A DNA stretch of 51,111 bases from Brevinematales bacterium (GCA_013177895.1 JABLXV010000016.1:1-51111); one strand, 5' to 3'; shown: positions 1,336-40,112, counted from the stretch's first letter. Notes: generated by a model from the sequence alone, not told the origin. Translations and numbers: made by a program.

Positions 1336-1445
1336 CTTATTTTCGGATTTTTTTACGATTATTGAATAGTAGACGGCTGTAAAATGATATCGTATTCAAG
1401 GGTTTGTATGCAGGCGGGTGGTTTTTATAGCGATGAGAAAATCAT

Positions 1446-1474
1446 TTGCAAAGCGCTGAAAATGGGGATATAAT
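1446..1474 (+). promoter_or_regulatory. Sigma-70-like promoter of the lipoprotein/rSAM cluster
   Basis: TTGCAA (1446-1451), a 17-base spacer and a consensus TATAAT (1469-1474) lie 29 bases upstream of the first lipoprotein start. The gene spacing below suggests that one transcript covers the three lipoproteins and the radical SAM gene. Confidence 0.65.
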
Positions 1475-1503
1475 AACGGTAGAGCGAATGATAAGGGGGA
1501 AGT

Positions 1504-1899
1504 ATGGCCGAACGTTTACGGAGATGGTTTGCGTCGATACTCAGTATCCTTTTCGGGTCGACTATCATCGGGGCATGCGCGCCTGCCTATATAGGGCCAC
1601 CCCCTGTTCCAGTTAATACTATCAAGGGTCAGGTTAAAGATAAAGATTCCGCGCAGGTCATAGCAGATATCCGTGTAATGCTGATAATAAACAGTTATAC
1701 GAATTCTGAAAGTTCCTATACGAACGGGGCATACTCATTCTATACACACAGCACGGTTGCGATTTTAGCCGTTGAGGATATTGACGGGGTTACCAACGGT
1801 ACATATCTCCCGACGAATTACACAGTTACCTTACCGGATAATTCCAGCGGATTTACTACCAATATCGGTATCCTGATGACGACCAACACAAACGGGTAA
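1504..1899 (+). CDS. Putative lipoprotein of an rSAM/lipoprotein system (first copy)
   Basis: 131 residues. The N-terminus is basic (AERLRRWF), followed by a hydrophobic segment and a lipobox IGAC with Cys25, so the mature protein should be a lipidated envelope protein. After the Cys comes a YIGPPP motif and then one small beta-sandwich like the carboxypeptidase-regulatory domain (IKGQVKDKD...NGAYSFYTH). This layout matches the small lipoproteins that in Bacteroidetes and spirochaetes sit beside a SPASM radical SAM enzyme (from memory TIGR04134, partner TIGR04133). It is a close paralogue of the next gene: same N-terminal RLRRWF, same FGST and same C-terminal ILMTTNTNG. SD GGGGGAAG precedes the ATG. 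The role is unknown; it may be a substrate of the radical SAM enzyme. Confidence 0.85.
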   Translation: MAERLRRWFASILSILFGSTIIGACAPAYIGPPPVPVNTIKGQVKDKDSAQVIADIRVMLIINSYTNSESSYTNGAYSFYTHSTVAILAVEDIDGVTNGTYLPTNYTVTLPDNSSGFTTNIGILMTTNTNG

Positions 1900-1925
1900 G
1901 GAAAGTATTAGAGCAAGGAGGACGT

Positions 1926-2318
1926 ATGACAGTACGTTTACGGCGATGGTTCAGTTCGATCCTCAGTCTCCTTTTCGGCTCGACTATTGTTTTATCATGC
2001 GCGCCTGCCGCCGCGTATATGGGGCCGCCCGAGGTCAATATTAACGGAAAGGTCAATAACCGTGTCACGATGGAGGCGATCTCGAATATCAGGATGTCCC
2101 TGATTGTGAACAGTATCACGAACTCTATATCCTCCGGAGCCGACGGCGCGTATGCGTTCTCTTCCCCGGAACGGAGTTTCACTATTCTGGCATACGATAT
2201 CGACGGGACGAATAACGGGGCATACCTTCCCACGAATTTCACGATGACCGTCCCTGACTTACCCTACTATTACAACACCAATATCGATATCCTGATGACG
2301 ACGAACACGAACGGGTGA
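1926..2318 (+). CDS. Putative lipoprotein of an rSAM/lipoprotein system (second copy)
   Basis: 130 residues, with an excellent AAGGAGG site before the ATG. N-terminal RLRRWF, a hydrophobic stretch and VLSC with Cys25 give a lipoprotein signal. The mature part starts with YMGPP and continues with one carboxypeptidase-regulatory-like beta-sandwich (INGKVNNRV, then GADGAYAFSSPE). The end, ILMTTNTNG, is identical to that of the preceding gene, which shows a recent tandem duplication; the middle has diverged clearly. It lies 26 bases after the first copy and 21 bases before the third lipoprotein. Family membership is well supported; function is unknown. Confidence 0.85.
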   Translation: MTVRLRRWFSSILSLLFGSTIVLSCAPAAAYMGPPEVNINGKVNNRVTMEAISNIRMSLIVNSITNSISSGADGAYAFSSPERSFTILAYDIDGTNNGAYLPTNFTMTVPDLPYYYNTNIDILMTTNTNG

Positions 2319-2339
2319 TCTGAAAAAGAGGGGAGAATA

Positions 2340-2690
2340 ATGAGATACTCGAATAGACTCATTATAATGGTTACTCTATTTATCGCGGTAATCGCCGCCG
2401 GGTGCATCCCCCGCGCAACAATGGAGTTCACCGGAAAGGTCAAAGACCTTTCGACCGGACGCGGGGTTTCACTGATACTCATATCGATGATTATTACCAA
2501 TTCGACTAATACGGTTCTGACCGGGCTGGACGGGGGATTCGCCTTTAAGGATTATTATTATTCTAACGTGGCTTTTCTGATTACCGGCGGGGGGCGTTAC
2601 ATGGCTACCAATTTCCAGATGGATGTGGAATATGTCCGTTTTCACGCTGAGGTCGATTTCGATATCGACTTGAACCTGAAAGAACAATAA
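2340..2690 (+). CDS. Third small lipoprotein of the rSAM cluster, divergent
   Basis: 116 residues. The signal peptide ends in IAAGC (Cys22). It lacks the RLRRWF and Y(M/I)GPP motifs of the two upstream copies but keeps the same single beta-sandwich plan (FTGKVKDLSTGRGVSL, TGLDGGFAFKDY, YMATNFQMDV). The shared ATNF/PTNF motif near the end supports common descent. SD GGGGAG lies just upstream, and only 17 bases separate its stop from the radical SAM gene. It is probably another envelope lipoprotein of the same system, with no assignable activity. Confidence 0.8.
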   Translation: MRYSNRLIIMVTLFIAVIAAGCIPRATMEFTGKVKDLSTGRGVSLILISMIITNSTNTVLTGLDGGFAFKDYYYSNVAFLITGGGRYMATNFQMDVEYVRFHAEVDFDIDLNLKEQ

Positions 2691-2707
2691 ACCGATACGG
2701 GAACGCT

Positions 2708-3787
2708 ATGCTGAAATGGGTAAAGAAACGGCTGCACGACGCTTTCCTCGATAATTGGAAAAAGAACGAAACCGGGCACCCGATGCACTGGCTGGAGGTC
2801 GAGGTCACCCGCCGTTGCCAGCTCTCCTGTCTCCATTGCGGGAGTTCCTGCGGGGCGGATCAGGTTCCGCCGGGCGAGCTGACGTTCGACGAATGGATGA
2901 AGGTATTCCGGCGTGTCGCGGAGACCTACGGCACTAAGGAAATCAAGGTCGCGGTCACCGGCGGAGAACCGCTCGTGCGGCAGGACATCTACCGCCTGAT
3001 AGCGAATATCACCGAGATGGGGTTTCAGGTCACGATGATGACGAACGGGATGACGATGGACGATACAGCGGTGAAATACCTCGCGGCGTCGGGGGTCGGC
3101 GGTATAGGGGTTTCTATCGACGGGATGGAGGAAAACCACGACTGGCTCCGAAACCGCAGGGGCGCGTTCCGAAAGGCGGCGGATACCCTGAAGACTTTAC
3201 AGGATTCGGGGTATTTCTATGTCGAACCGATCACCACGGTCAATAAACGAAACCTCGGCGAGCTCGCGCGGATGGAGGAGTTGTTCCGCTCCATCGGCGT
3301 ACCGTCATGGCGGATGTTCAAGACATTCCCTATCGGGCGGGCGAATCAGTACCCCGAACTTTTTCTCGACGGCGGCGAATTCCGCACCCTCATGGATTTC
3401 ATAAAAAAACGTTATACCGATAAGAAACACCGCCCGAAAGTATCGTTCTGCGAGATCGGCTACCTCGGCGATTACGAGCTCGAGGTACGGAGCTTTTTCG
3501 CGCAATGCTTCGCGGGCATCAATACCCTCGCCATTCTCGCCGACGGGAGTATCACCGGATGCGCGGCGGTATCCCCCGGCTTTATACAGGGAAATATCCG
3601 CAAGGACGATGTGATCGACGTGTGGGAGAACCGTTTCAGGGTATTCCGCGACCGGAGCTGGATGAAGCGGGGCGGGTGCGGCGAATGCGGGGCGTATCCG
3701 TACTGCCGCGGCGACGGTTTCCACTTATGGGAAAAGGGCGGCTTGAACCCCGCCGAGTGCAATTTCAAGATGCTGAACGGGGGTTAG
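2708..3787 (+). CDS. Radical SAM/SPASM enzyme of the rSAM/lipoprotein system
   Basis: 359 residues, complete. The radical SAM cluster motif CxxxCxxC is at Cys37, Cys41 and Cys44 (CQLSCLHC), TGGEP at 84-88 binds SAM, and SIDG lies at 136-139. A C-terminal SPASM domain has Cys248, 267, 285, 324, 327, 333 and 351, ending GGCGECGAYPYC then GDGFHLWE, which should hold auxiliary 4Fe-4S clusters. SPASM enzymes typically modify ribosomally made peptides or proteins. The family with this C-terminal pattern (from memory TIGR04133) occurs next to small lipoproteins, as here. The plausible substrates are the three lipoproteins encoded just upstream, but the chemistry is not known. Its last four bases overlap the convergent Omp85-like gene. 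The SD is weak (GGGA), suggesting coupling to upstream translation. Confidence 0.88.
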   Translation: MLKWVKKRLHDAFLDNWKKNETGHPMHWLEVEVTRRCQLSCLHCGSSCGADQVPPGELTFDEWMKVFRRVAETYGTKEIKVAVTGGEPLVRQDIYRLIANITEMGFQVTMMTNGMTMDDTAVKYLAASGVGGIGVSIDGMEENHDWLRNRRGAFRKAADTLKTLQDSGYFYVEPITTVNKRNLGELARMEELFRSIGVPSWRMFKTFPIGRANQYPELFLDGGEFRTLMDFIKKRYTDKKHRPKVSFCEIGYLGDYELEVRSFFAQCFAGINTLAILADGSITGCAAVSPGFIQGNIRKDDVIDVWENRFRVFRDRSWMKRGGCGECGAYPYCRGDGFHLWEKGGLNPAECNFKMLNGG

Positions 3788-5091
3788 AATCCCGAAGTCC
3801 CCCAGAGAACCGCGCGGAATTCACCGAAACGGTTCCACCCGAAACAAAGCGTCCCGTTTACAGCGAACGGGTCGTCGAGCGATACCCGCAGTCCGAAGCC
3901 GTAAGCGTCCATCAGAGTGTTATTCCCGAATAGCGGCCGGCCGTAGGGGGACGATACCCCGAGATCGGTAAAGACGAACGCGTCGAGCTGGGTGGCGAAC
4001 ATGGGCGGGAGGAAAAACTCCGCGATACGGATGCGGTACTCGAAGTTGAAAAGGGCGTAGTTCTCCGCGAAGGTACGGTAGTACTCCTGCGGGGAACGCA
4101 CCGACAGGTCGTGAGTTCCCTTGAGGTCGAATTTTTCCTTATACGGCAGAAGCCCGCTGGTCAATCCCCCGGAAATCTGGAAATTCAACGAGTGCTTCCA
4201 TCCCGCCAATACCCGCTTGACCGCGAGAACTCCCTGAAAGCTGAACAATGTTTCCTCGCGCTCGAGCGGAAGGAATGCCTTCATCCGCAGGAGAAAATAT
4301 CCCCCCGAGCGGATCGGGTCTTTCCCGTCATTGAAGGAATACTGGATATAAGGGGAGAGTATCAATTCGGTACGCTCCGACGCGCCGATAAAGCCCGGGG
4401 GTATCGCGGGATTCACCGACGGGTGGATGATATGATGCAGGTTGACGTCGAACCCGGCGATCCAGTCGATAGGAAACTCCAGCCCGAACCGGGCGTTCAG
4501 GTCGTAGAGGTGGTAGTTCGCGATTGCGGACGGGATAATCCCGTTATTTTTATAGTACGCCGACAGGGTGATATGGAACGGGATAAACGCGAGATACTTC
4601 ATCTTAAATTCAGTTCCGATACGGTTGTATCCCAGATCGAAACGCAGGTCGAACGGTTTCCCCGCGAGGTTGTTCAGTATCAGCGACCCGTAGGCGAATC
4701 CTCCCCCGATGCGCATCTGTTTGGCCTCGGTGAGATAGATCAGGATATGGCTGGTTTCCGGGTCGGACGGGTCTGGAAGGATATATACCTCGACTGCGGA
4801 GTAATATTTCGACGCGGTCAGGCGGGATACGGTGCGCGAAATCTGCCACTTCAGGATATGGTCGTTATAGGTCTTACCGGGGGAAAACGAGACGAGTGTG
4901 ACGACCGTATAGGGCTCGGTCAGGCATCCGGGGATTTTTTCGGGCAGGATGTTTTTATTCGTCCAGACATACTCGAATTTGTTATTGATAACGATATGAA
5001 CCGAGCCTACCCTCACCTTCGCGAATGCGGTCGAAATCCCGATGAAGAGAAGCATGATACCGTAAAAAATAGTGGTTACCCTGCGAGTCAT
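3784..5091 (-). CDS. Omp85/BamA-family outer-membrane barrel protein with POTRA-like domain
   Basis: 435 residues with an N-terminal signal peptide (to about residue 24, ISTAFAKV). Residues about 65-125 look like one POTRA domain (FSPGKTYNDHILKWQI...EVYILPD..HILIYLTEA). From about residue 130 onward there are alternating amphipathic beta strands, and the chain ends in the aromatic residue Phe, as in Omp85 barrels. A stretch near 325-355 (KGTHDLSVRSPQEYYRTFAE) sits where BamA/TamA proteins have the substrate-exit strand motif. It is much shorter than BamA, which has five POTRA domains, so it is more likely a TamA- or patatin-like accessory Omp85 protein. It is convergent with the radical SAM gene and overlaps it by four bases. 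Confidence 0.75.
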   Translation of the reverse strand: MTRRVTTIFYGIMLLFIGISTAFAKVRVGSVHIVINNKFEYVWTNKNILPEKIPGCLTEPYTVVTLVSFSPGKTYNDHILKWQISRTVSRLTASKYYSAVEVYILPDPSDPETSHILIYLTEAKQMRIGGGFAYGSLILNNLAGKPFDLRFDLGYNRIGTEFKMKYLAFIPFHITLSAYYKNNGIIPSAIANYHLYDLNARFGLEFPIDWIAGFDVNLHHIIHPSVNPAIPPGFIGASERTELILSPYIQYSFNDGKDPIRSGGYFLLRMKAFLPLEREETLFSFQGVLAVKRVLAGWKHSLNFQISGGLTSGLLPYKEKFDLKGTHDLSVRSPQEYYRTFAENYALFNFEYRIRIAEFFLPPMFATQLDAFVFTDLGVSSPYGRPLFGNNTLMDAYGFGLRVSLDDPFAVNGTLCFGWNRFGEFRAVLWGTSGF

Positions 5092-5145
5092 CCGGCATCA
5101 CCCTGTCAGAAATATTCTTCATCGTCGATTTGGAAATCCGTAGAA

Positions 5146-5174
5146 TTGATTTTATTTGCAGGGTATTATATAAT
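5146..5174 (+). promoter_or_regulatory. Sigma-70-like promoter of purC
   Basis: TTGATT (5146-5151), a 17-base spacer and TATAAT (5169-5174). Transcription should begin near 5181, which excludes translation starts upstream of it and fixes the purC start at 5205. Confidence 0.75.
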
Positions 5175-5204
5175 ACTTCTTTAAAAACCACAACGAGGAA
5201 GAGT

Positions 5205-6083
5205 ATGAACGCTATTACCTCCACGAATATCAGGGAACTGAAGAAATTATTCAGCGGAAAGGTGCGCGATATCTACGAGATCGATCCCGACCGGTGGCTC
5301 TTGGTGACCACCGACAGGATATCCGCGTTCGACGTCGTATTTAACGAGGGCATCCCCGATAAAGGAAGGGTGCTGAACCGGATATCCAATAAATGGTTCG
5401 AGAAGATGACGATGCTCCCGAATCATCTGATCAGCACGAACCCCGTGAACGAACTCCCGTATCTGGCGAATTACCCCGGTATCGCGGAGCGCGCGGTAAT
5501 TGTTAAGAAGGTGAACCGTCTCCCGGTGGAATGCGTCGTGCGCGGCCACCTCTTCGGCAGCGTGTACAGCGAGTATAAAGAAAGCGGTACTGCCGGAGGA
5601 CTGCTGCTCCCGTCGGGGCTCAGCCTCGCGGAGGAGCTCCCCGAACCGATCTTTACCCCCGCCGATAAGGCGGAATCCGGGCATGACGAGAATATCGACC
5701 ATGCCAGGTTTTTCGAGGTGGTCGGCGAAAAGACCGGCAGGCAGATCATGGATTACGCGATCGCGATATATATCAAGGCCCGCGATATAATGAAAGGCCT
5801 CGGGATTATTCTCGCGGACACCAAGTTCGAGTTCGGCATCGACAAGGAAGGGACATTGATACTGGTGGACGAGGTACTGACGCCCGATTCCTCGCGTTAC
5901 TGGGACGGCGATACGTTCAAGGTGGGCGAGAGCCCCCGGAGCTACGATAAACAGTTCCTGCGGGATTACCTGAACACACTGAAATGGGACAAGACTCCGC
6001 CGCCTCCGCCGTTACCCGCGGATATTATCGATAAAACCCGCGAGAAATACGTGAGCATACTGAATACGATTGAAAAAATATAA
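5205..6083 (+). CDS. purC: Phosphoribosylaminoimidazole-succinocarboxamide synthase (SAICAR synthase)
   Basis: 292 residues. It catalyses ATP-dependent joining of aspartate to CAIR in de novo purine synthesis, in the cytosol. Family motifs are present: SGKVRDIYE at the N-terminus, TTDRISAFD, VECVVRGHLFGS, GHDENI, DTKFEFG and LVDEVLTPDSSRYW. The length fits the longer (about 290-residue) PurC type rather than the 240-residue E. coli type. ATG 5205 is used because GAGG lies six bases upstream and the promoter at 5146-5174 excludes the earlier in-frame ATG at 5130. It is followed after nine bases by an RDD-family membrane protein; no other purine genes adjoin except guaA, 34 kb away. Confidence 0.95.
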   Translation: MNAITSTNIRELKKLFSGKVRDIYEIDPDRWLLVTTDRISAFDVVFNEGIPDKGRVLNRISNKWFEKMTMLPNHLISTNPVNELPYLANYPGIAERAVIVKKVNRLPVECVVRGHLFGSVYSEYKESGTAGGLLLPSGLSLAEELPEPIFTPADKAESGHDENIDHARFFEVVGEKTGRQIMDYAIAIYIKARDIMKGLGIILADTKFEFGIDKEGTLILVDEVLTPDSSRYWDGDTFKVGESPRSYDKQFLRDYLNTLKWDKTPPPPPLPADIIDKTREKYVSILNTIEKI

Positions 6084-6092
6084 GAGATATCA

Positions 6093-6674
6093 ATGAGCAT
6101 GAACGAACAACCCGTGGAAAGCCCTGTAAAAGATAACCAGCCCATCCTGTTGCATTTCGCTCCCGTATGGAAGCGTATTTTAGCTTATATAGTCGATATG
6201 GGGTTCCTGAAGACAATAGAAATCACGATGATATGGATCGTCTTCTCCAATGAGATCAACGCGATTTACCAGATGAAGGGCACGTTCGAACAGCAGTACC
6301 AGCTGATGACGAATTTCTTCATGGGGCACTCAGACCTTCTGCTGATAGCGATGGTTATAGTAGAAGCGTCCTATTTTATACTGATGTGGTTCGGCGGGAA
6401 TCAGACTCTGGGCATGAAACTCCTGAAAATCGCGGTGATCGACGCGTCGAACCGGAAACTCAATATCCTGATGTGCATCCTGCGGTATTTCCTGCTCTTC
6501 CTCGCGGCGCAGTTATTATATATCCCCCTGATATTCGTCGTCAATCCGGTTTATCACCAGCGAATCCATGACTTCCTCACCGGAACGGTCGTAGTGGAAA
6601 TCCCGAAGCACGATGACCTGGAGAAGGATACGTCCGAAGAGGAAAAAAAGGCAATGGATGAGATACCCGATTAA
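6093..6674 (+). CDS. RDD-family integral membrane protein
   Basis: 193 residues. The RDD signature is recognisable as APVWKRILAYIVD near residue 28, followed by a hydrophobic helix and a charged loop. A second hydrophobic helix (about 88-107) precedes NQTLGMKLLKIAVID, the second conserved RDD block, and a third helix lies at about 125-150. The C-terminal tail is acidic (DDLEKDTSEEEKKAMDE). RDD proteins are small membrane proteins of mostly unknown role; some are proposed sodium or compatible-solute transporters. It starts nine bases after purC, so it is probably cotranscribed, and its stop overlaps the convergent J-domain gene by four bases. Confidence 0.75.
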   Translation: MSMNEQPVESPVKDNQPILLHFAPVWKRILAYIVDMGFLKTIEITMIWIVFSNEINAIYQMKGTFEQQYQLMTNFFMGHSDLLLIAMVIVEASYFILMWFGGNQTLGMKLLKIAVIDASNRKLNILMCILRYFLLFLAAQLLYIPLIFVVNPVYHQRIHDFLTGTVVVEIPKHDDLEKDTSEEEKKAMDEIPD

Positions 6675-6973
6675 TCGGTTTTCTTCTTGTAATTATCCTG
6701 ATAGAAACGTTTATGCATCACCGCCTCGTCCACCTGCCGGTAAAACTCCTTCTCGGAGAAGTCGATCCGGTAGTTCTCGCAGTATGTCCTGAGGATATCG
6801 TAAGCCTTGTTGAGCTTGGCGGTCTCCTCGTCGGCGGTTTCAGGGGAGAGAACCGACGAATCGGGGTGAGTTTGCTTGACCGAGTCCTTATAAATCTTTT
6901 TTATCTTCTTATACGTCGTGGGAATCGATATCCCGAGTACTTCCTTCGCCCACCTAAAATCATCGTAATTCAT
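6671..6973 (-). CDS. Small J-domain (DnaJ-like) protein
   Basis: 100 residues from ATG 6973. The first half is a J domain: WAKEVLGI helix I, KKIKKIYKDSVKQTHPDSS with the diagnostic HPD tripeptide at the end of helix II, and LNKAYDILRTY helix III. The rest (RIDFSEKEFYRQVDEAVMHKRF) is charged and helical, with no Gly/Phe or zinc-finger region. It should stimulate an Hsp70 (DnaK) ATPase for an unknown client. A longer frame upstream to 7090 is rejected because its extra residues resemble no J-protein N-terminus and the domain begins exactly at MNYDDFRW. It is convergent with the RDD gene. Confidence 0.75.
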   Translation of the reverse strand: MNYDDFRWAKEVLGISIPTTYKKIKKIYKDSVKQTHPDSSVLSPETADEETAKLNKAYDILRTYCENYRIDFSEKEFYRQVDEAVMHKRFYQDNYKKKTD

Positions 6974-7095
6974 AATTAGTTCCGTATATTGTGGTATTTT
7001 TGTTATATATTGGTTGCAAAAATAAATTATAGAAAACTCTTGACAAAACGCGTAATATTGCGTAATATTAAAACGAAAACGATATCGCACCTCCG

Positions 7096-7130
7096 CTAGT
7101 AGGCGGGTTCGTACCGGATCCGTCTACTAG
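7096..7130 (-). terminator. Possible hairpin terminator after the 7TM-SpoIIE gene
   Basis: An 11-base inverted repeat with one mismatch (CTAGTAGgCGG at 7096-7106, CCGtCTACTAG at 7120-7130, loop 13) starts three bases beyond the stop of the leftward phosphatase gene. A T-rich run follows only after about 20 bases on the minus strand, so termination is uncertain. Confidence 0.4.
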
Positions 7131-7132
7131 TA

Positions 7133-9097
7133 CTATATCTGTTTCCGTTTTTCTTGTTTTTTACCCGTTCCTTTCTTTGCCCCGCCCTTAGATATCGGCA
7201 CTTCCAGCCCGATCATGCAGATGTCGTCCTCGAAAACATCCGAACCCCGGTAATCGATCAACCGTTGAACGATGCGGTCGATAAACACGTTGATGGGGAG
7301 CGGTGAAAATTCGCGGAGGATATTATTCAGATGCCTCTCGCCGAAATCTTCGCTCGAATCCGCCGGGGCTTTTACGTTGACGGTTTCCGACAGGCCGTCC
7401 GTATAAAGATAGACCTTAGACCCTTCTTCGAGCATTACTTTATCGTTCCTGTACTTCTTCTCGCCCTGCTGGATCTCCGTATTGCTCATTATGCCGAGCG
7501 GAACCCCTTTTTTATTGATTCCGATAGGCGTGACCTTTTCACGGGTTACCACTAACGGCGGAAGATGCCCTGCGTTGGCGAATAAAAGGCTATGCTCGGC
7601 GGGGTCGTATATCCCGTAGAACGCGGTGATAAAATTTCCGCCGGTCAGGCCGAACAGGAAATCGTTCATCAGGTATAGGAACTCCTCCGGGGAGTTGATC
7701 AGCACCGAGAACTGGAGGGTGACGCTTTTTATCATCGATGTGATGAGCGCCGCGGGTACGCCGTGCCCGGAAACGTCGCTCAGGAATATCCCGATACTGC
7801 CGTTGGGGTAACGCACCATATCGAAGAAGTCTCCGCCGACCTCCTCGAGGGAGTGATAGTAGAACGCGATGTCGGGAGAGGGCGAATTCTTCGGGATAAA
7901 CTGCATCTGGATTGCATGGGCGAGCGAGAGTTCGTGCTCGTATATCGCGTTACGTATCTTCAGCTTATTTTTTTCCTTCTCGAGCGCGGCGTAGGTGACC
8001 CGTAATTCTTCCTGCGCCTTCTTTCTGTTAACGATTTCCTTCTGCAGGGTTTTCATCTCGCGGATATCATGGGCGACGATGACAAATCCGGCGTTATCGC
8101 TCAGGCTATCCTTAATCAGGGATACGGACATAAGCACGGGAATAAGCTCGCGCTTTTTCGATATGAGTTGGATTTCGTTGGAATGCGGGGTGAACTCGTC
8201 GCGGACTTTGAGGACGAGGCGGAAAAAGTGGTCTTTTTCGTGTACCAGCGGGGAAAACGCCCTCCCGGTCAGTTCGGCCTGCGCGTATCCCAGAAGTTCC
8301 TCCGCGCTCTGGTTGACCTTGAGGACATTCCCCTGCGGATCGACGAGAATCAGGATATCCATCATTTTCGACGTGATTTCATCGGTAACGATCTCGGAGG
8401 TCATATTCATCAGACGGTACTTGATGATGGATATCCAGATGCCGAACGCCCATATCCCGAAAAAGACATGCCCCAGCGGCGGGATATCCCATGAAAATAC
8501 CGAAGAGAAGAAATTCGATAAAAAGGTAAGGCATGTGCTGATGAGGATAGAAATAATCATAATCAGGGTCTGAATGCGGATTTTTACGCTGTTTTTATTC
8601 CGTCCCTGCCATCGCAGGAGCATGATTATCCCGCCTGACGCGAAGAGTATTTGTACAATATTGTATGTAATCACCCACGGGGAAAGGGAATTGACCATTT
8701 CGCGCCACCCGTAGGATACGGGAATAAAATCGTACGCGAACAGGAGGCCGTTCAGCGCGGCGATTAAAAATACGATCCCGGGCGCGTAGAACAAAACAGG
8801 CAGCAGTATATGGAACTTTTTCGCATGACGGCGGGTGAGGACGAACCAGAGATGGAAACCGGCCGCGGAGGCGAGCGTCCACCCGATCGATGAAAAACGG
8901 TACCACGAGACGACTGTATCCTTGTCCCCGGCGGAGAAGATAAACGTGTAACTAAGCGCCCATGCCGCAAGGAGCAGGGCGAAAAAGGCGAATAGCTGGT
9001 TCGCGCGGCTTTTTAATCCCCTGTAAAGAGCGAATCCGGCTAGAGAGAGATAGAATAGCACAAAAGTAAAGGACAGCAGGGAAAGAGTTAGTTTCAT
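7133..9097 (-). CDS. 7TM-PAS-SpoIIE protein phosphatase (RsbU-like signalling protein)
   Basis: 654 residues from ATG 9097, which has GGGGGAAG six bases upstream; an earlier in-frame ATG at 9121 falls in the promoter's -10 end and is rejected. Residues 1 to about 225 are a bundle of seven hydrophobic helices like the N-terminal 7TM region of some histidine kinases. About 240-350 is a PAS domain (MDILILVDPQGNVLKVNQSAEELLGY). Then come a short coiled coil and, from about 400, a SpoIIE/PP2C phosphatase domain (EEVGGDFFDMV, SDVSGHGVPAAL, FANAGHLPP, LYTDGLSET). Such proteins dephosphorylate anti-sigma-factor antagonists in partner-switching pathways. No anti-sigma or antagonist gene is next to it. 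Confidence 0.88.
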   Translation of the reverse strand: MKLTLSLLSFTFVLFYLSLAGFALYRGLKSRANQLFAFFALLLAAWALSYTFIFSAGDKDTVVSWYRFSSIGWTLASAAGFHLWFVLTRRHAKKFHILLPVLFYAPGIVFLIAALNGLLFAYDFIPVSYGWREMVNSLSPWVITYNIVQILFASGGIIMLLRWQGRNKNSVKIRIQTLIMIISILISTCLTFLSNFFSSVFSWDIPPLGHVFFGIWAFGIWISIIKYRLMNMTSEIVTDEITSKMMDILILVDPQGNVLKVNQSAEELLGYAQAELTGRAFSPLVHEKDHFFRLVLKVRDEFTPHSNEIQLISKKRELIPVLMSVSLIKDSLSDNAGFVIVAHDIREMKTLQKEIVNRKKAQEELRVTYAALEKEKNKLKIRNAIYEHELSLAHAIQMQFIPKNSPSPDIAFYYHSLEEVGGDFFDMVRYPNGSIGIFLSDVSGHGVPAALITSMIKSVTLQFSVLINSPEEFLYLMNDFLFGLTGGNFITAFYGIYDPAEHSLLFANAGHLPPLVVTREKVTPIGINKKGVPLGIMSNTEIQQGEKKYRNDKVMLEEGSKVYLYTDGLSETVNVKAPADSSEDFGERHLNNILREFSPLPINVFIDRIVQRLIDYRGSDVFEDDICMIGLEVPISKGGAKKGTGKKQEKRKQI

Positions 9098-9121
9098 AGT
9101 ACTTCCCCCGGCAATATACAT

Positions 9122-9149
9122 ATTCTAACACGGAATAATACAGAGTCAA
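9122..9149 (-). promoter_or_regulatory. Promoter of the 7TM-SpoIIE gene
   Basis: On the minus strand TTGACT (9149-9144), a 16-base spacer and TAGAAT (9127-9122), located 25 bases before the ATG at 9097. Confidence 0.65.
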
Positions 9150-9176
9150 CTGAAAGCATCGGATTCGAACAATGTT

Positions 9177-10121
9177 TTATTTTTTACATACGACAATGTC
9201 GAAATTCAACTTCCTGTCCTTCCGTGAATCGAGGAAATCCGCGTCGAACTCTCCGGTCATGAGTTCGTTCAGCCTGCCGATAACGATTTCGTGCTTTGCC
9301 GGATCCACTTCCAGCTGGGAGGAGCGCGTCCTGTCGGCGATCTGACTCCAAACCCGTCGGGGATTATCCGGCAGGGTAAAATTCAGCCTCGGGTCGGAGA
9401 TTATCTCCACGGCGGGAAATATTTTTCTGAGCCCCGGGTTGATTTCTTCCTTGCCCCATCCCGGGGAATCGGCTAACCCGATACTATCATCCTTCGCGAG
9501 ACGGATATACAGCTCGTCGATACGTTTGGATACCGACGGCTTACCGTTATCGAAGTGGATGAGCGTCGTGACAAATACGCCGCCGGGTTTCAGTACCCGG
9601 AATATTTCACTGACTACGGCGTCGGTGTTTTTTATCAGATGCAGGAGATGGATCGCGATAGCGGAGTCGAACGTATTATCCGGGAACGGCAGGTCGAGGG
9701 CATTCGCGCGGACGGGGATGATGTTAGAAAGCCCCAAACCCGCGGCCTTTTTAACCAGCAGCGCGAGCATATTCATGGATATATCGCAGGCGTAGGCCGT
9801 TTTGCAGGATTTCGCCAGATTGACCGTGTGGATTCCCGTGCCCGCGCCGATGTCGAGCATGACCGCGTCCGGGGGGAACTGTTCCGCGATGACCGTGCCG
9901 AGGTTCTCCACCACTTCGGGGTCTCCGTAACGGGTGTCGTCATAGACCGACGCGATATCGTCGAAACCGATATAGTCGTAGTCGCCGTTACCCCCGGAGA
10001 TCGCGGGGTCGTCCGTCATAATAGCGATACCGCCGGATGAGAGGATTTTCCGCCCGCAACGGGGGCATTGATTATCGGAGGATAACTGTACACGGCAATC
10101 CGGGCAGAATAAGGTTTGCAT
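9177..10121 (-). CDS. Zinc-ribbon class I SAM-dependent methyltransferase
   Basis: 314 residues, ATG preceded by AAGGAG. The N-terminus is a four-Cys zinc ribbon (CPDC at 6-9, CPRC about 19-22). The methyltransferase core follows: IASVYDDTRYGDPEV, motif I LDIGAGTGIHTVNLA, motif II acidic AYACDISMNML, DLPFPDNTFDSAIAIHLLHLI (motif IV region) and VLKPGGVFVTT. This is the Methyltransf_11 type, as in UbiE- and BioC-like enzymes and in rRNA methyltransferase RlmA, which also has an N-terminal zinc ribbon. The substrate cannot be told from sequence. It is oriented like the downstream phosphatase gene, but that gene has its own promoter. Confidence 0.8.
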   Translation of the reverse strand: MQTLFCPDCRVQLSSDNQCPRCGRKILSSGGIAIMTDDPAISGGNGDYDYIGFDDIASVYDDTRYGDPEVVENLGTVIAEQFPPDAVMLDIGAGTGIHTVNLAKSCKTAYACDISMNMLALLVKKAAGLGLSNIIPVRANALDLPFPDNTFDSAIAIHLLHLIKNTDAVVSEIFRVLKPGGVFVTTLIHFDNGKPSVSKRIDELYIRLAKDDSIGLADSPGWGKEEINPGLRKIFPAVEIISDPRLNFTLPDNPRRVWSQIADRTRSSQLEVDPAKHEIVIGRLNELMTGEFDADFLDSRKDRKLNFDIVVCKK

Positions 10122-14518: not shown

Positions 14519-16789
14519 ATGACTAGAGATATCGATATGATACACGGGGTATATGACGGACTGCGTGGAAAGGTGGAATCCGCGCGAAAGGCCGCCGGAC
14601 ATCCGTTGACGCTGACCGAAAAGATACTCTATTCCCATCTCGCGGAAGCCCCGTCGGGCGAGCTCAAGCGCGGTTCCGATTACGCGATGCTTAATCCCGA
14701 CCGTGTGGCGATGCAGGATGTGACCGGACAGATGGCGATTTTACAGTTTATGACCGCGGGGATGCCCCGCACGGCTGTTCCCGCGACGGTTCACTGCGAC
14801 CACCTGGTAGAAGCATGCTACGGCGCTAAGGAAGACCTTCGTACGGCGTTAGATAACAATAAAGAAGTTTATTCGTTCCTCGAAAGCGTCACCGCGAAGT
14901 ACGGTATCGGATTCTGGAAGCCCGGCGCGGGCATTATTCACCAGATCGTGCTGGAAAACTACGCGTTCCCCGGCGGACTGATGATCGGCACCGATTCGCA
15001 TACTCCCAACGCGGGCGGGCTGGGAATGCTCGCGATCGGCGTGGGCGGCGCGGATGCCGTCGATGTAATGTCCGGGATGCCGTGGGAACTGCTGGTGCCG
15101 AAGATCTACGGCGTGCGCCTGACAGGGCGTCTGAACGGATGGACGTCCGCGAAGGATATTATCCTGCACCTCCTGGGTCTCCTGACAGTCGAGGGCGGTA
15201 CGGGCGCGGTGATGGAGTATTTCGGCGACGGCGCGGCATCGTTATCCGCGACAGGGAAGGCGACTGTGACCAATATGGGCGCGGAACTGGGCGCGACCGC
15301 GTCGGTGTTCCCGTTCGATAAGAAGCACGCGGAGTACCTGAAAGCCACCGGGCGCGCGGATGTCGCGGAAATGGCGGAAAAACTCGCGGATTGTCTCTCG
15401 CCCGACGCGGAGGTGGTGAAGAATCCCGATAAGTATTATGATAAAGTGATCGATATAGACCTTTCCGCGCTCGAGCCGTATATCAACGGGCCGTTTACGC
15501 CGGATAAGGCGATACCCATATCGAAGATGAAGGACGCGGTACGCGAGAACGGGTATCCCGCGCAGTTGTCGGCGGCGCTTTTAGGGAGCTGCACCAACGC
15601 GAGCTACGAGGATATCGATAAATCGGCGCAGATCGCGCGTCAGGCGCTCGATAAGGGGATGAAAGCCCGCTCGAAGTTCTATATTTCGCCCGGTTCCGAC
15701 CGAGTCCGCGCGACTGTCGAGAAGGAAGGCCAGCTCGCGACCCTCAAGAGCTTCGGCGCGGTCATCCTCGCCAACGCCTGCGGGCCGTGCATCGGGATGT
15801 GGAACCGCAAGGATGTGCCGATGGGGCTTGCGAACACGATAGTGACCTCGTTCAACCGTAACTTCAAGAAGCGCGCCGACGGGAATCCCGCGACCCATGC
15901 GTTCGTATCGGCCCCGGAAATACTGACCGCGATGGCTATCGCCGGGAACGTGACCTTCGACCCGTCGAGCGACCCCGTGTCCATCCGTTACGGCGAGGAA
16001 GGGTTCATGCTCAAGCCGCCAGTGGCGCGCGAGCTTCCCGCGAAGTTCGAGAACGAGGAGATCGGTATGATCGAGCCTCCCGTCGACGGTTCGGGCATCG
16101 AGGTAAGCGTCGACCCGTCGAGCGACCGTCTCCAGCTTCTCGCGCCGTTTGAGAAGTGGGACGGCAGCGATATAGAAAACGTACCCGTGATGATAAAGAT
16201 CAAGGGAAAGTGCACCACCGACCATATTTCCCCGGCGGGCGAATGGCTGAAATACCGCGGGCATCTGCGGAATATCTCGCGGAATATGTACCTCGGGGCG
16301 GTGAACGCCTATACGGGAGACGCCGGGCGGACGAAAAATATTCTGAACGGCGCGGTGGATACTCCCGCGGCAGTGGCGGCGGACTATCAATCGAAGGGTA
16401 AGGGATGGGTCGTGATCGGCGATTCGAATATCGGGGAGGGTTCGTCCCGCGAACATGCCGCGATGGAACCGCGTTTCCTCGGATGCCGAGCCGTGATCGC
16501 GAGGAGTTTCGCGCGTATCCATGAGACCAACCTTAAGAAGCAGGGGGTTCTCGCGCTGACGTTCGCCGACCCGTCGGACTACGATAAAATCCGCGAAGAC
16601 GACACAGTTTCCGTCCGCGGGCTGAAGGATTTCGCGCCCGGGAAGAACCTGACGCTGGAAATCACGCATTCCGATAAATCGTCCGAGACCGCCGCGCTCA
16701 AGCACACGTTCAGCGCGAACCAGATTGAGTGGTTTGTCGCCGGCAGCGCGTTGAATCTGATCGCGAAGTCGGTGAAAGGGTCGAAATAA
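14519..16789 (+). CDS. Aconitate hydratase, mitochondrial type
   Basis: 756 residues; AAGGAG six bases before the ATG. It interconverts citrate and isocitrate in the TCA cycle with a 4Fe-4S cluster. Visible hallmarks: VTGQMAILQFM, VPATVHCDHLVEA, GTDSHTPNAGGLGMLAIGVGGADAV (split here by description only), LLGSCTNASYED (cluster Cys about 357), ANACGPCIG (cluster Cys about 421 and 424), the swivel-domain KGKCTTDHISPAG and GDSNIGEGSSREHAA. The length and motif variants match the roughly 750-residue mitochondrial-type family rather than the roughly 890-residue AcnA or the AcnB types. It has its own promoter and is followed by the TPP riboswitch, so it is not part of the thiamine operon. Confidence 0.93.
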   Translation: MTRDIDMIHGVYDGLRGKVESARKAAGHPLTLTEKILYSHLAEAPSGELKRGSDYAMLNPDRVAMQDVTGQMAILQFMTAGMPRTAVPATVHCDHLVEACYGAKEDLRTALDNNKEVYSFLESVTAKYGIGFWKPGAGIIHQIVLENYAFPGGLMIGTDSHTPNAGGLGMLAIGVGGADAVDVMSGMPWELLVPKIYGVRLTGRLNGWTSAKDIILHLLGLLTVEGGTGAVMEYFGDGAASLSATGKATVTNMGAELGATASVFPFDKKHAEYLKATGRADVAEMAEKLADCLSPDAEVVKNPDKYYDKVIDIDLSALEPYINGPFTPDKAIPISKMKDAVRENGYPAQLSAALLGSCTNASYEDIDKSAQIARQALDKGMKARSKFYISPGSDRVRATVEKEGQLATLKSFGAVILANACGPCIGMWNRKDVPMGLANTIVTSFNRNFKKRADGNPATHAFVSAPEILTAMAIAGNVTFDPSSDPVSIRYGEEGFMLKPPVARELPAKFENEEIGMIEPPVDGSGIEVSVDPSSDRLQLLAPFEKWDGSDIENVPVMIKIKGKCTTDHISPAGEWLKYRGHLRNISRNMYLGAVNAYTGDAGRTKNILNGAVDTPAAVAADYQSKGKGWVVIGDSNIGEGSSREHAAMEPRFLGCRAVIARSFARIHETNLKKQGVLALTFADPSDYDKIREDDTVSVRGLKDFAPGKNLTLEITHSDKSSETAALKHTFSANQIEWFVAGSALNLIAKSVKGSK

Positions 16790-33574: not shown

Positions 33575-35860
33575 TTACCCTCCCAGCCCGAGAATCCGCC
33601 CGCCCTGATACACGATAAACGACGTCAGCCACGCCAGCAGGATTTGGTACAATATCGTGATGCCCGCCCATTTCCATTTTCCCAGCTCGTGAACCATCGA
33701 CGCGATAAAGGTGATGCACGGCACATACAGCAGGACGAACACGAGGAACGCGTATGCAGATAGGGGCGTGAACGCGTTATGAAGCGTAGCCGAAAGCTCG
33801 GTAGGCGGAGCCTCCTGCGCGGCGGATACGGTCACAATCCCGAAGATAGACAGCAGATTCGCCCCGGCGCCGCGTAACGCGGTCAGGAATCCCAGCCCGA
33901 TGCCGCCCAAGTCCTCTAAAAATGTAGGCGACGGCGCGAGGTTGGTATTGGTGAGCGGGGCGGCGAGGTTCGACGACGGGGTAATCCCGGTCACTATCGG
34001 TAATCCCGATATCGCGGAGTTCGACCCGTTGGAAACCTGCTCCATATAGATCGCGGTCATACTGCTGACGACGATTTCCTTCGCGCCTATCCCGGCGATC
34101 AGCGAGGCGGACGCCTGCCATGTCCCGAAGCCGAGCGGCTCGAACACGGGCGCGATGAACGCCCCGGCCTTCCCGAGGAAGGAATCCTTAGTACTGGTTA
34201 CGCCCCACGGCAGACGGGTCAGGAACCAGATGATGATGGTCAGCGCGAGGATGACGGTTCCCGCCTTAGTAACGAAATGCTTCACTTTATCCCATGTATG
34301 CACGAAAAGGTTCGATATCGACGGCATCCGGTACGGCGGGAGTTCCATAATAAACTCCTGCGTCTCGCCCTTGAAGAGGATTTTCCGCAGAAGCCAGCCC
34401 ATCCCGAACGCGGCGAGAATCCCGAGGAGATACAGCGACCAGATGACTGTTCCCGACATCGCGGCGGGGAAAAATATAGCCGCGAACAGGATATACACAG
34501 GGAGCCGCGCCGAGCAAGACATCAGCGGGGATATCATCGCGGTCAGTATCTTATCCTTGGGGTCTTCGAGGATACGGGTCGCGTACACGGAAGGCACGTT
34601 ACACCCGAAACCCAGTACGAGCGGAATAAACGACTTACCGTGCAAGCCCATCTTATGCATAATCCCGTCCATCAGGAACGCCGCGCGCGCCATATACCCG
34701 CTTCCCTCGAGGAATGTGATAAAGAACATCATAAAGAAGATCAGCGGTACGAACACGAGAATCCCGCCGACTCCCGAGATAATACCGTCCAGCACGAGCG
34801 AACGGAACCAGTCCGGCGCGGCGAACAGGTTCAGGATAGCGCCCATCCATCGGGTAAACGGACCTGTTACAATACTTTCGAGCCAGTAGACGAACGGATT
34901 CCCGATGTCGAAGGTGAGCTTGAACATCACCCACATGGAGAACAGGAAGATAGGAATGCCCGCGAAACGGTTGAGCGCGATACGGTCGATACGGTCGGTG
35001 AGCTCGGTACGCCCGCCGGGAGGACGTTTCAGCGCGAGATGGGTCAGCCCGTTCGCCTGCGCGAACCGTTCGTCGTCCATCAGCGCGGATAAATCACTCC
35101 CGTGCGCGGTCTGGAGATGCACGAGCGAGTCGCCTGTCAGGTATTCGACTGAGGCCACACCCGATTTTTCAATAAAATACCCGTCGTTCTCGAGGAGGCG
35201 TACCGCGCTCCATCGCACGGGATATTTTAAAAGCGGGCTGCCGCCGGGCGATTTCAGCGCGTTATCGATACTGCATTGTATTCCGCGGATCGCGTTCTCG
35301 ATATCGATATTATAATTGAATAATGCGGGATTGACGGGGATAGTATTACCGGACACCCCCGCGATCGTCTTCAGGAGGGTATCGATCCCGGATTTCCTGA
35401 CCGCAGACGTGCGGACTACCTTCACGCCGAGGTTCTTCTCGATTATATCCGTATCGATGACATAACCCTTCTGCCCGGCCTCGTCGGACATATTCAGCGC
35501 GACCACTATGGGTATACCGAGCTCGAGGAGGTGCAGGGTCAGGATGAGATTGCGTTCGAGGTTGGTGGAGTCGACGACATTGAGGATGATATCGGGGGGC
35601 GATTCGGTCAGGAAATCGACCGCGACCTTCTCGTCGTCGGTGTACGGGTGGAGGCTGTACGAACCGGGGAGGTCGATAAATACGAACTCGACGCCCATAT
35701 AATCGATACGCGCCTCTTTCTTTTCTACAGTTACGCCCGGCCAGTTTCCGACATAGAGCTTCGACCCGGCGATAGCGTTGATCAGCGTGGATTTCCCGCA
35801 GTTGGGGTTTCCAGCGACCGCGATAGTCAGCGACTTGCGGTCAGGATTTTTTGCCGTCAT
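33575..35860 (-). CDS. feoB: Ferrous iron transport protein B
   Basis: 761 residues from ATG 35860 (GGAGG six bases upstream; an in-frame GTG at 35878 lies before that site). It imports Fe2+ across the inner membrane. N-terminal G-protein domain: GNPNCGKST (17-25), FIDLPGSYSL, ALNMSDE and a switch region; then the GDI-like helical part and the membrane domain with two Gate motifs (GSGYMARAAFLMDGIM; CSARLPVYI) typical of FeoB. A Ser/Asn/Pro-rich loop (about residues 620-655) between membrane helices is longer than usual. It overlaps feoA by 20 bases and is followed by a p12-like gene. Confidence 0.95.
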   Translation of the reverse strand: MTAKNPDRKSLTIAVAGNPNCGKSTLINAIAGSKLYVGNWPGVTVEKKEARIDYMGVEFVFIDLPGSYSLHPYTDDEKVAVDFLTESPPDIILNVVDSTNLERNLILTLHLLELGIPIVVALNMSDEAGQKGYVIDTDIIEKNLGVKVVRTSAVRKSGIDTLLKTIAGVSGNTIPVNPALFNYNIDIENAIRGIQCSIDNALKSPGGSPLLKYPVRWSAVRLLENDGYFIEKSGVASVEYLTGDSLVHLQTAHGSDLSALMDDERFAQANGLTHLALKRPPGGRTELTDRIDRIALNRFAGIPIFLFSMWVMFKLTFDIGNPFVYWLESIVTGPFTRWMGAILNLFAAPDWFRSLVLDGIISGVGGILVFVPLIFFMMFFITFLEGSGYMARAAFLMDGIMHKMGLHGKSFIPLVLGFGCNVPSVYATRILEDPKDKILTAMISPLMSCSARLPVYILFAAIFFPAAMSGTVIWSLYLLGILAAFGMGWLLRKILFKGETQEFIMELPPYRMPSISNLFVHTWDKVKHFVTKAGTVILALTIIIWFLTRLPWGVTSTKDSFLGKAGAFIAPVFEPLGFGTWQASASLIAGIGAKEIVVSSMTAIYMEQVSNGSNSAISGLPIVTGITPSSNLAAPLTNTNLAPSPTFLEDLGGIGLGFLTALRGAGANLLSIFGIVTVSAAQEAPPTELSATLHNAFTPLSAYAFLVFVLLYVPCITFIASMVHELGKWKWAGITILYQILLAWLTSFIVYQGGRILGLGG

Positions 35861-36164
35861 TCCCGTCCTCCATATCACGCACGAGAATTTTCCGCGCGAT
35901 ACCCCGCCCGATCGCGAGCCTGCTCCCGTCGACCATAACCAGTATCGGGCCGAATCCCTGATTGGACAGCATTTCCACTTCCTTCCCGATACGCAGACCC
36001 ATCGTCTCGAGACGGTGCACTCCTCCCTCCCATCCTAATCCGCCATGCCAGTGCCCGTGCCCCTCGTGAGGGGTGTCGTTATGATGGAGGGAGGAATGAT
36101 GTTTGTGGTCTATCGATGCAATAATGACTTTTTCGCCGTTTTTTACGCTTTCCAGATCGTCCAT
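35841..36164 (-). CDS. feoA: FeoA-like protein with His-rich insertion
   Basis: 107 residues from ATG 36164, with GAGG six bases upstream. The SH3-like FeoA fold is visible: GEKVIIASIDH at the start, then RLETMGLRIGKEVEML and ILVMVDGSRLAIGRGIARKILV. Between strand 1 and the LETMGLR block a 21-residue segment has nine histidines (20, 22, 23, 27, 28, 33, 36, 38, 40), absent from ordinary FeoA, which is about 75-85 residues long. The insertion could bind Fe2+ or another metal. It is the first gene of the operon and overlaps feoB by 20 bases. Confidence 0.88.
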   Translation of the reverse strand: MDDLESVKNGEKVIIASIDHKHHSSLHHNDTPHEGHGHWHGGLGWEGGVHRLETMGLRIGKEVEMLSNQGFGPILVMVDGSRLAIGRGIARKILVRDMEDGNDGKKS

Positions 36165-39804: not shown

Positions 39805-40112
39805 TTATACATCCTCCGATAGGAAAACTGTAGCGGTCGGAGTGAGGATTCGCGCCTTATGTCCGTTCTCCGCGCCGGGGGGAATCAGTATCGCGTCGCC
39901 GGTGTGATAATGCACGACAGTCCCGCGGAAGTCGATCTCGAACTCTCCGTCGAGCACATATCCGGTATGCCCCTTCACGCACCAGTCCGGTTCGACGAAG
40001 TCATGGGAATATTCCACCAGGCGAAGCTGTTTCCTGCCGGACACAGCCGCTTGAAACGGACTCCCTTCATCGGGGATTCCCATTCGACTGCGGAAAAATC
40101 GACCCGGTTCAT
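39805..40112 (-). pseudogene. Cupin-domain gene broken by a frameshift
   Basis: The start ATG (40112) overlaps the guaA stop (ATGA) and reads MNRVDFSAVEWESPMKGVRFK, in pieces a normal N-terminus for small cupins. After about codon 21 that frame runs to an early stop, while the -1/+1 neighbouring frame continues with RKQLRLVEYSHDFVEPDW, GHTGYVLDGEFEIDF and GDAILIPPG, the cupin body. Restoring one G near 40050 (AAG to AAGG) would join them into a roughly 102-residue cupin. It is either a real loss or a sequence error; the body alone could start at ATG 40083. Confidence 0.7.

What the first reader, a model, noticed from the sequence alone, without database searches (positions are those of the whole stretch)
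1504..5091. rSAM/lipoprotein system: three tandem small lipoproteins with a SPASM radical SAM enzyme, convergent with an Omp85-like barrel protein
Seen: three short lipobox proteins in tandem (131, 130 and 116 residues), two with the shared RLRRWF and Y(I/M)GPP motifs, each carrying one carboxypeptidase-regulatory-like sandwich, then a radical SAM gene with a seven-Cys SPASM region. Known: SPASM enzymes modify ribosomally made peptides, and rSAM/lipoprotein pairs have been catalogued in Bacteroidetes and spirochaetes without a known product. Inferred: the lipoproteins are the substrates and the modification happens before export. Three substrates and a convergent Omp85 protein make this copy unusual.
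Basis: partly seen in the sequence, partly recalled or inferred. Interest (0 to 1): 0.78.

Follow-up and report, generated by a model that had tools for sequence, protein, structure and literature searches.

The report
Radical SAM enzyme with lipoprotein partners
A spirochaete operon pairs a radical-chemistry enzyme with small membrane-anchored lipoproteins; comparing 36 such enzymes suggests that the enzyme alters a Tyr-Gly-Pro spot next to the lipid anchor, although the product is still unknown.

Summary
Window 1504-3787 is a tight + strand operon of three short lipobox proteins and a SPASM-type radical SAM enzyme. The enzyme is a remote TIGR04133 (rSAM_w_lipo) relative: 318 bits, curated cut-off 425. 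LP1 and LP2 match TIGR04134 weakly; LP3 does not. The pairing is real: 35 of 36 enzymes in this family have adjacent lipoproteins, and the exception sits at a contig end. In congener G066 one deletion removed LP1-LP3 and about 90% of the enzyme gene and left an in-frame stub.

(1) The Omp85-like neighbour is not part of the system: G066 keeps it intact, and neither other families nor the genome's second cassette have it. (2) LP3 is probably not a substrate: it lacks the only feature shared by the other 44 partners, a Tyr-Gly/Pro motif (CYGMP, AYMGPP) just after the lipid Cys. (3) The SPASM region has six motif cysteines, not the canonical seven.

The carboxypeptidase-like sandwich is dispensable (seven partners of 60-88 aa lack it); the Tyr-Gly/Pro motif is not. 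Best reading: the enzyme modifies this anchor-proximal motif before export. The chemistry is unknown. New variant of a catalogued but uncharacterised system.

The parts
1504..1899 (+). LP1, 131-aa lipoprotein, lipobox IIGA-C25, motif C-APA-YIGPPP; probable substrate
   Evidence: (TIGR04134 24.6 bits, cut-off 39.8)
1926..2318 (+). LP2, 130-aa lipoprotein, lipobox VLS-C, motif C-APAAA-YMGPPE; transthyretin-like sandwich with DIDGTNNG loop; probable substrate
   Evidence: 19.2 bits; best PDB match 5aq0, carboxypeptidase D transthyretin-like domain
2340..2690 (+). LP3, 116-aa lipoprotein (AAG-CIPRATMEF) without the Tyr-Gly/Pro motif or DxDG; conserved and under purifying selection; probably not a substrate
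   Evidence: (no TIGR04134 match)
2708..3787 (+). Radical SAM/SPASM enzyme, 359 aa, remote TIGR04133 relative; CX3CX2CX3C signature (C37, C41, C44, C48), C-terminal C248 and C267, C285, C324, C327, C333, C351
3784..5091 (-). Omp85-like outer-membrane protein (one POTRA-like domain plus barrel); NOT part of the cassette
   Evidence: (Omp85 0.016)

Best explanation
LP1-LP2(-LP3)-rSAM is a self-contained lipoprotein-maturation cassette. The cytosolic radical SAM/SPASM enzyme acts on the still-unexported lipoprotein precursor, with the signal peptide doing the job that a leader peptide does in other RiPPs, and modifies the Tyr-Gly/Pro motif that lies within a few residues of the future lipidated cysteine. 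Sec export, lipidation and signal peptidase II then place the modified segment at the membrane surface. The C-terminal sandwich is a carrier or spacer that can be lost. LP1 and LP2 are substrates and LP3 is probably not. Shown: gene content, pairing, co-loss, motif and conservation pattern. Inferred: that the lipoproteins are the substrates, that the motif is the target, and the order of events. Unknown: the chemistry.
For: TIGR04133 7.7e-95 for the enzyme and TIGR04134 2e-5 / 9.6e-4 for LP1 / LP2. 35 of 36 family enzymes have an adjacent same-strand lipoprotein; the exception (L070) starts at a contig end. No other gene family recurs beside them in the loci compared, apart from generic ABC ATPase-like and response-regulator-like genes in five loci each. 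44 of 47 partners carry YG, YxGP or YAP within 35 residues of the lipobox Cys; the strict Y.?G.?P form occurs in 37 of 47, against a mean of 2.9 and a maximum of 9 in 500 shuffles. The peak of conservation over all partners is Cys+0..+4. The motif persists where the sandwich is absent (L080, L088, L096, four in L097). G066 lost LP1-LP3 and most of the rSAM in one deletion and keeps an in-frame rSAM stub. Radical SAM cysteines and six SPASM cysteines are kept. A SPASM maturase that acts on Tyr (PqqE) is established (PMC5715301).
Against: No biochemical data exist, and no paper mentioning TIGR04133 or TIGR04134 was found in the held library. The motif is not uniform: YG-x-P in most, Y-x-GP in the window clade, YAP in two partners, and its distance from the Cys is 1-29. 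It was defined after looking at these sequences. Conservation around a lipobox could also serve lipoprotein sorting. Signal peptides are conserved about as well as, not clearly better than, the mature domain, so leader recognition is not demonstrated. No RRE domain was reported by the Pfam scan of the window enzyme.
Confidence: 0.58

Rival explanations
1. The lipoproteins are substrates, but the modified residues lie in the transthyretin-like sandwich (for instance the DxDGxxNG loop), and the Tyr-Gly-Pro segment is only a recognition or sorting element.
For: DxDGxxNG-like loops are common in sandwich-bearing partners and the sandwich is the bulk of most of them; the DxDG loop is also missing from LP3.
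Against: Seven partners (L080, L088, L096, four in L097) are 60-88 aa without room or sign of a sandwich, yet keep the lipobox and Tyr-Gly/Pro motif and still sit next to the enzyme.
Confidence: 0.15
2. A specific form of the best explanation: a three-residue cyclophane, in which the enzyme joins the Tyr ring to the beta-carbon of the residue two positions on (Tyr-Gly-X), as other SPASM cyclophane synthases do with aromatic-X-X motifs.
For: Tyr-Gly-[MVTCPIS] in the majority of partners gives an X3 with a beta-carbon; SPASM enzymes form such C-C bonds (own knowledge of other families).
Against: In the window clade X3 is Gly (YIGPP, YMGPP, YAGP), which has no beta-carbon, so this bond cannot form there; the chemistry would have to differ between clades.
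Confidence: 0.12
3. In the window clade the precursors are cut by signal peptidase I after A-x-A, giving a free N-terminal Tyr (YMGPP...), not by the lipoprotein pathway, and the enzyme acts on that terminus.
For: All seven Tyr-bearing window-clade partners have an alanine-rich -3/-1 pattern directly before the Tyr (APA-Y, AAA-Y, VAA-Y).
Against: All seven also have a well-placed lipobox Cys (IGAC, LSC, TSC, LGAC, FGSC, LGGC), and most partners elsewhere have the Tyr directly after that Cys.
Confidence: 0.08
4. The lipoproteins are not substrates but partners, and the enzyme acts on something else encoded in trans.
For: No direct evidence of modification; orphan lipoproteins of the family occur without a nearby enzyme (L099, L101).
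Against: Strict pairing across two phyla, joint loss in G066, no other recurring gene, and an exported protein would be an odd partner for a cytosolic enzyme.
Confidence: 0.07

Closest known systems
rSAM/lipoprotein system, NCBIfam TIGR04133 (rSAM_w_lipo) with TIGR04134 (lipo_with_rSAM)
   Same: Adjacent small lipoprotein and SPASM radical SAM enzyme; annotated pairs in Parabacteroides distasonis and Treponema saccharophilum pTS1 and a matching unannotated pair in Phocaeicola massiliensis share the Tyr-Gly-x-Pro motif and the Cys pattern.
   Different: Window enzyme 318 bits against cut-off 425; LP1/LP2 25 and 19 bits against 39.8; about 36% identity to canonical enzymes; its own long, fully supported branch; motif Y-x-GPP instead of YG-x-P; three lipoproteins.
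PqqE and other SPASM peptide maturases
   Same: Radical SAM plus SPASM domain acting on ribosomal peptides, Tyr among known targets (PqqE joins Glu and Tyr; PMC5715301).
   Different: No PqqD/RRE partner was seen; the proposed substrates are full-size lipoproteins with a Sec signal peptide; this SPASM region lacks the CX3C cysteine, whereas PqqE deviates at another position (Asp319).
SkfB, sporulation killing factor maturase
   Same: Closest solved structure by sequence to the window enzyme (6efn, E 3.4e-24).
   Different: SkfB has an N-terminal RRE and a twitch domain and makes a thioether (PMC8326336); the window partners have no conserved Cys besides the lipid one.

Membership tests
TIGR04133 (radical SAM of the rSAM/lipoprotein system) | score above the curated cut-off of 425 bits | tested here: not met
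   317.8 bits, E 7.7e-95; the second cassette of the same genome has 351 bits
TIGR04133 (radical SAM of the rSAM/lipoprotein system) | adjacent small lipoprotein gene | tested here: met
   LP3 ends 17 nt before the enzyme; 35 of 36 family loci have a partner
TIGR04133 (radical SAM of the rSAM/lipoprotein system) | cysteine pattern shared by canonical members (CX3CX2CX3C, then CX12GX4C, CX2CX5C, C) | tested here: met
TIGR04134 (lipoprotein partner) | score above the curated cut-off of 39.8 bits | tested here: not met
   LP1 24.6, LP2 19.2, LP3 no match
TIGR04134 (lipoprotein partner) | lipobox followed by a Tyr-Gly/Pro motif (derived here from members, including canonical ones) | tested here: met
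   LP1 and LP2 yes, LP3 no
SPASM domain | seven-cysteine motif CX9-15GX4C-CX2CX5CX3C-C | tested here: not met
   six of seven; the CX3C cysteine is absent in all 36 family members; Pfam SPASM at 8.7e-8 is above its own cut-off
RiPP (ribosomally made, post-translationally modified) | enzyme-dependent modification of the precursor | not testable with these tools
   needs mass spectrometry
Omp85 superfamily (neighbour 3784-5091) | POTRA domain plus 16-strand barrel | tested here: inconclusive
   NCBIfam Omp85 E 0.016; low-confidence model (pLDDT 44.9) whose listed best PDB matches are nearly all BamA/TamA, E down to 9.5e-8 but TM under 0.3

The most novel reading that the evidence does not exclude
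A widespread but uncharacterised maturation route in which a radical SAM enzyme uses the lipoprotein signal peptide as leader and rewrites a Tyr-Gly-Pro segment beside the lipid anchor of full-size lipoproteins, with the window clade doing a variant chemistry on Tyr-X-Gly-Pro where a standard Tyr-to-X3 cyclophane is impossible.
Probability: 0.4. Interest if true: 0.7.

Novelty: new variant of a known kind. Interest (0 to 1): 0.45.

Why it matters
The rSAM/lipoprotein pair is catalogued in Bacteroidota and spirochaetes, but no product or target site turned up in the papers searched here. The comparison narrows the likely target to a five-residue segment next to the lipid anchor, gives a natural negative control in the same operon (LP3) and a natural deletion mutant (G066), and makes the substrate question answerable with one co-expression and mass-spectrometry experiment. 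If true, lipoproteins would be a class of radical SAM substrates whose signal peptide doubles as leader.

Tried and rejected
Omp85 as a partner: rejected. Three equal substrates: rejected for LP3 on motif grounds. Signal peptide more conserved than the mature part: tested, not general (0.36 against 0.33 in the Treponema-like set, 0.23 against 0.38 in the window clade). Dedicated protease or transporter in the neighbourhood: none recurs. Literature: searches for the family names and for radical SAM with lipoprotein found nothing on this system; Haft and Basu 2011 is not held. The lipoprotein background control was small (16 lipobox ORFs; the only two with the motif are members of the same family), so shuffles were added. 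AlphaFold of the barrel was too poor to settle its fold.

Full report
OBSERVATION. The window (contig C16 of G000, same genus as G119 = Spirochaetes bacterium GWF1_49_6 and G089 = GWF1_51_8) carries, on the + strand, LP1 1504-1899 (131 aa), LP2 1926-2318 (130 aa), LP3 2340-2690 (116 aa) and a radical SAM gene 2708-3787 (359 aa), 17-26 nt apart, each preceded by a purine-rich ribosome-binding-like stretch. A 435-aa gene runs convergently, 3784-5091 (-); the two stop codons overlap.

WHAT THE PROTEINS ARE. The enzyme matches NCBIfam TIGR04133 at 7.7e-95, 317.8 bits, below the curated 425; LP1 and LP2 match TIGR04134 at 24.6 and 19.2 bits, below 39.8; LP3 matches nothing. Pfam gives Radical_SAM and SPASM for the enzyme and only sub-threshold carboxypeptidase-regulatory hits for the LPs. 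An AlphaFold model of LP2 on a six-row alignment reached pLDDT above 90 through the core, and its best PDB match is the transthyretin-like domain of carboxypeptidase D (5aq0, E 3.4e-5, TM by target 0.80), so the sandwich claim holds for LP2. LP1 and LP2 are 55-56% identical.

THE FAMILY. The same genome has a second cassette on C10 (L004): one lipoprotein (CYGVPADY) and an enzyme only 35% identical to the window one. In 393 Spirochaetota genomes, 28 hold a TIGR04133-like enzyme at E 1e-60 or better. Annotated canonical pairs lie on plasmids of Parabacteroides distasonis and Treponema saccharophilum; Phocaeicola massiliensis has the pair unannotated. A tree of 36 enzymes puts window, L006 and L007 on their own long branch (100/100, length 1.45), the second-copy type in a seven-row clade (100/99), and the canonical ones elsewhere. 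The tool warns that the most divergent row, L097, may be wrongly drawn to the window clade. Two types coexist in G000 and G089 (window type and second-copy type) and in G001, G067 and G316 (canonical and second-copy type).

THE PAIRING. 35 of 36 enzymes have an adjacent same-strand lipoprotein within about 1.3 kb; the one without (L070) begins near a contig start. Apart from the enzyme and the lipoprotein only two generic families (ABC ATPase-like; response-regulator-like, judged by eye from the sequence) recur, in five loci each. In GWF1_51_8 two contigs, C48 (upstream neighbour gene, then two LPs, then contig end) and C20 (two LPs, enzyme, barrel), are the two halves of the same locus by synteny, giving four LPs; the join itself is inferred.

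NATURAL DELETION. G066, same genus and 96% complete, aligns to the window at 4-1375 (85%) and 3686-10063 (77%), with window 1376-3685 missing. What is left is an in-frame enzyme C-terminus, GYPYCCGDGFHLWENAGLNPAECNYKLLNGD-stop, next to an intact barrel gene at 74% identity. No TIGR04134 or close TIGR04133-type gene was found elsewhere in G066. So lipoproteins and enzyme went together and the barrel stayed. The convergent Omp85-like gene is a neighbour, not a component; it is also absent from the second cassette and does not recur beside the enzyme in other families.

THE SHARED MOTIF. Among 47 partner lipoproteins, 44 carry YG, YxGP or YAP within 35 residues of the lipobox Cys; the three without are LP3, its orthologue in GWF1_49_6 and the LP3-like one in GWF1_51_8. 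The strict form Y.?G.?P occurs in 37, against 2.9 on average and at most 9 in 500 residue shuffles. In most the Tyr directly follows the lipid Cys (CYGMP, CYGVP, CYGTP, CYGPP). The segment Cys+0 to +4 is the most conserved part in three of four subgroups and overall (0.41 identity against 0.29 for the mature domain and 0.17 for the last 20 signal residues); in the window clade, where the Tyr sits 4-10 residues after the Cys, this measure does not apply. Seven partners of 60-88 aa (L080, L088, L096, four in L097) show no sandwich but keep the motif. The motif, not the sandwich, is therefore the constant feature. The motif was defined on these sequences, so an independent set (more Bacteroidota members) should still be checked.

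ENZYME DETAILS. All 36 keep a CX3CX2C signature except L068, where one Cys reads Tyr; the signature is extended by a fourth Cys (CX3CX2CX3C). All have six SPASM cysteines and an invariant His (H339), and none has the CX3C cysteine of the canonical seven-Cys motif defined for PqqE (PMC5715301). An upstream Cys (C248) is found in 33 of 36 by pattern. 'Seven-Cys SPASM' is therefore literally a count of seven but not the canonical motif.

LP3. It is maintained (dN/dS 0.13 against GWF1_49_6) but lacks the Tyr motif, the DxDG loop and the RLRRWF leader. It serves as a built-in negative control if the motif is the target.

MECHANISM. The enzyme has no export signal and the partners are exported, so modification most likely precedes export (established logic). 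The only segment common to all Tyr-bearing partners is the anchor-proximal Tyr-Gly/Pro, so the most likely target is there (inference). In the window clade a Tyr-to-X3 beta-carbon cyclophane is impossible because X3 is Gly; the Gly alpha-carbon or the Tyr itself are candidates (inference). No experiment on this system was found in the held library.

VERDICT. A genuine, divergent, multi-lipoprotein relative of the rSAM/lipoprotein kind; 'new variant of a known kind'. The useful gain is a specific, testable target site and the removal of the barrel and LP3 from the model.

Noticed in passing
L097 (G046:C6:13500-29000), about 6437-8413: The most divergent enzyme is preceded by four tiny lipoproteins (60-88 aa) without sandwich; three share a DYIEQ(I/V)A-E-S tail.
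   Followed up: partly
L099 (G347:C17:87000-101000) 6655-7059; L101 (G015:C12:89500-98032) 6536-7413 (-): Orphan lipoproteins of the family (CYGVPEDIEYY; two in tandem in L101) far from the genome's enzyme, possible substrates in trans.
   Followed up: partly
L117 (G066:C23) about 6651-6751: In-frame stub of the radical SAM gene left by a deletion of the cassette.
   Followed up: yes
window 1504-2318 and L006, L007, L098: All seven Tyr-bearing window-clade lipoproteins have an A-x-A-like pattern directly before the Tyr, which could be read as a signal peptidase I site.
   Followed up: partly
window 3784-5091 (-): Short Omp85-like protein with a single POTRA-like domain, found only in this genus among the order's genomes apart from a weak hit in G014.
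   Followed up: partly
L068 (G067:C277) enzyme, 670-1749: Third radical SAM signature cysteine reads Tyr (CKHYGNDC), a possible inactive copy or sequencing error.
   Followed up: no
window 14519-16789, 33575-35878, 40109-41644, 42374-44638: Ordinary genes: aconitase, FeoB, GMP synthase, HAMP-SpoIIE phosphatase.
   Followed up: no
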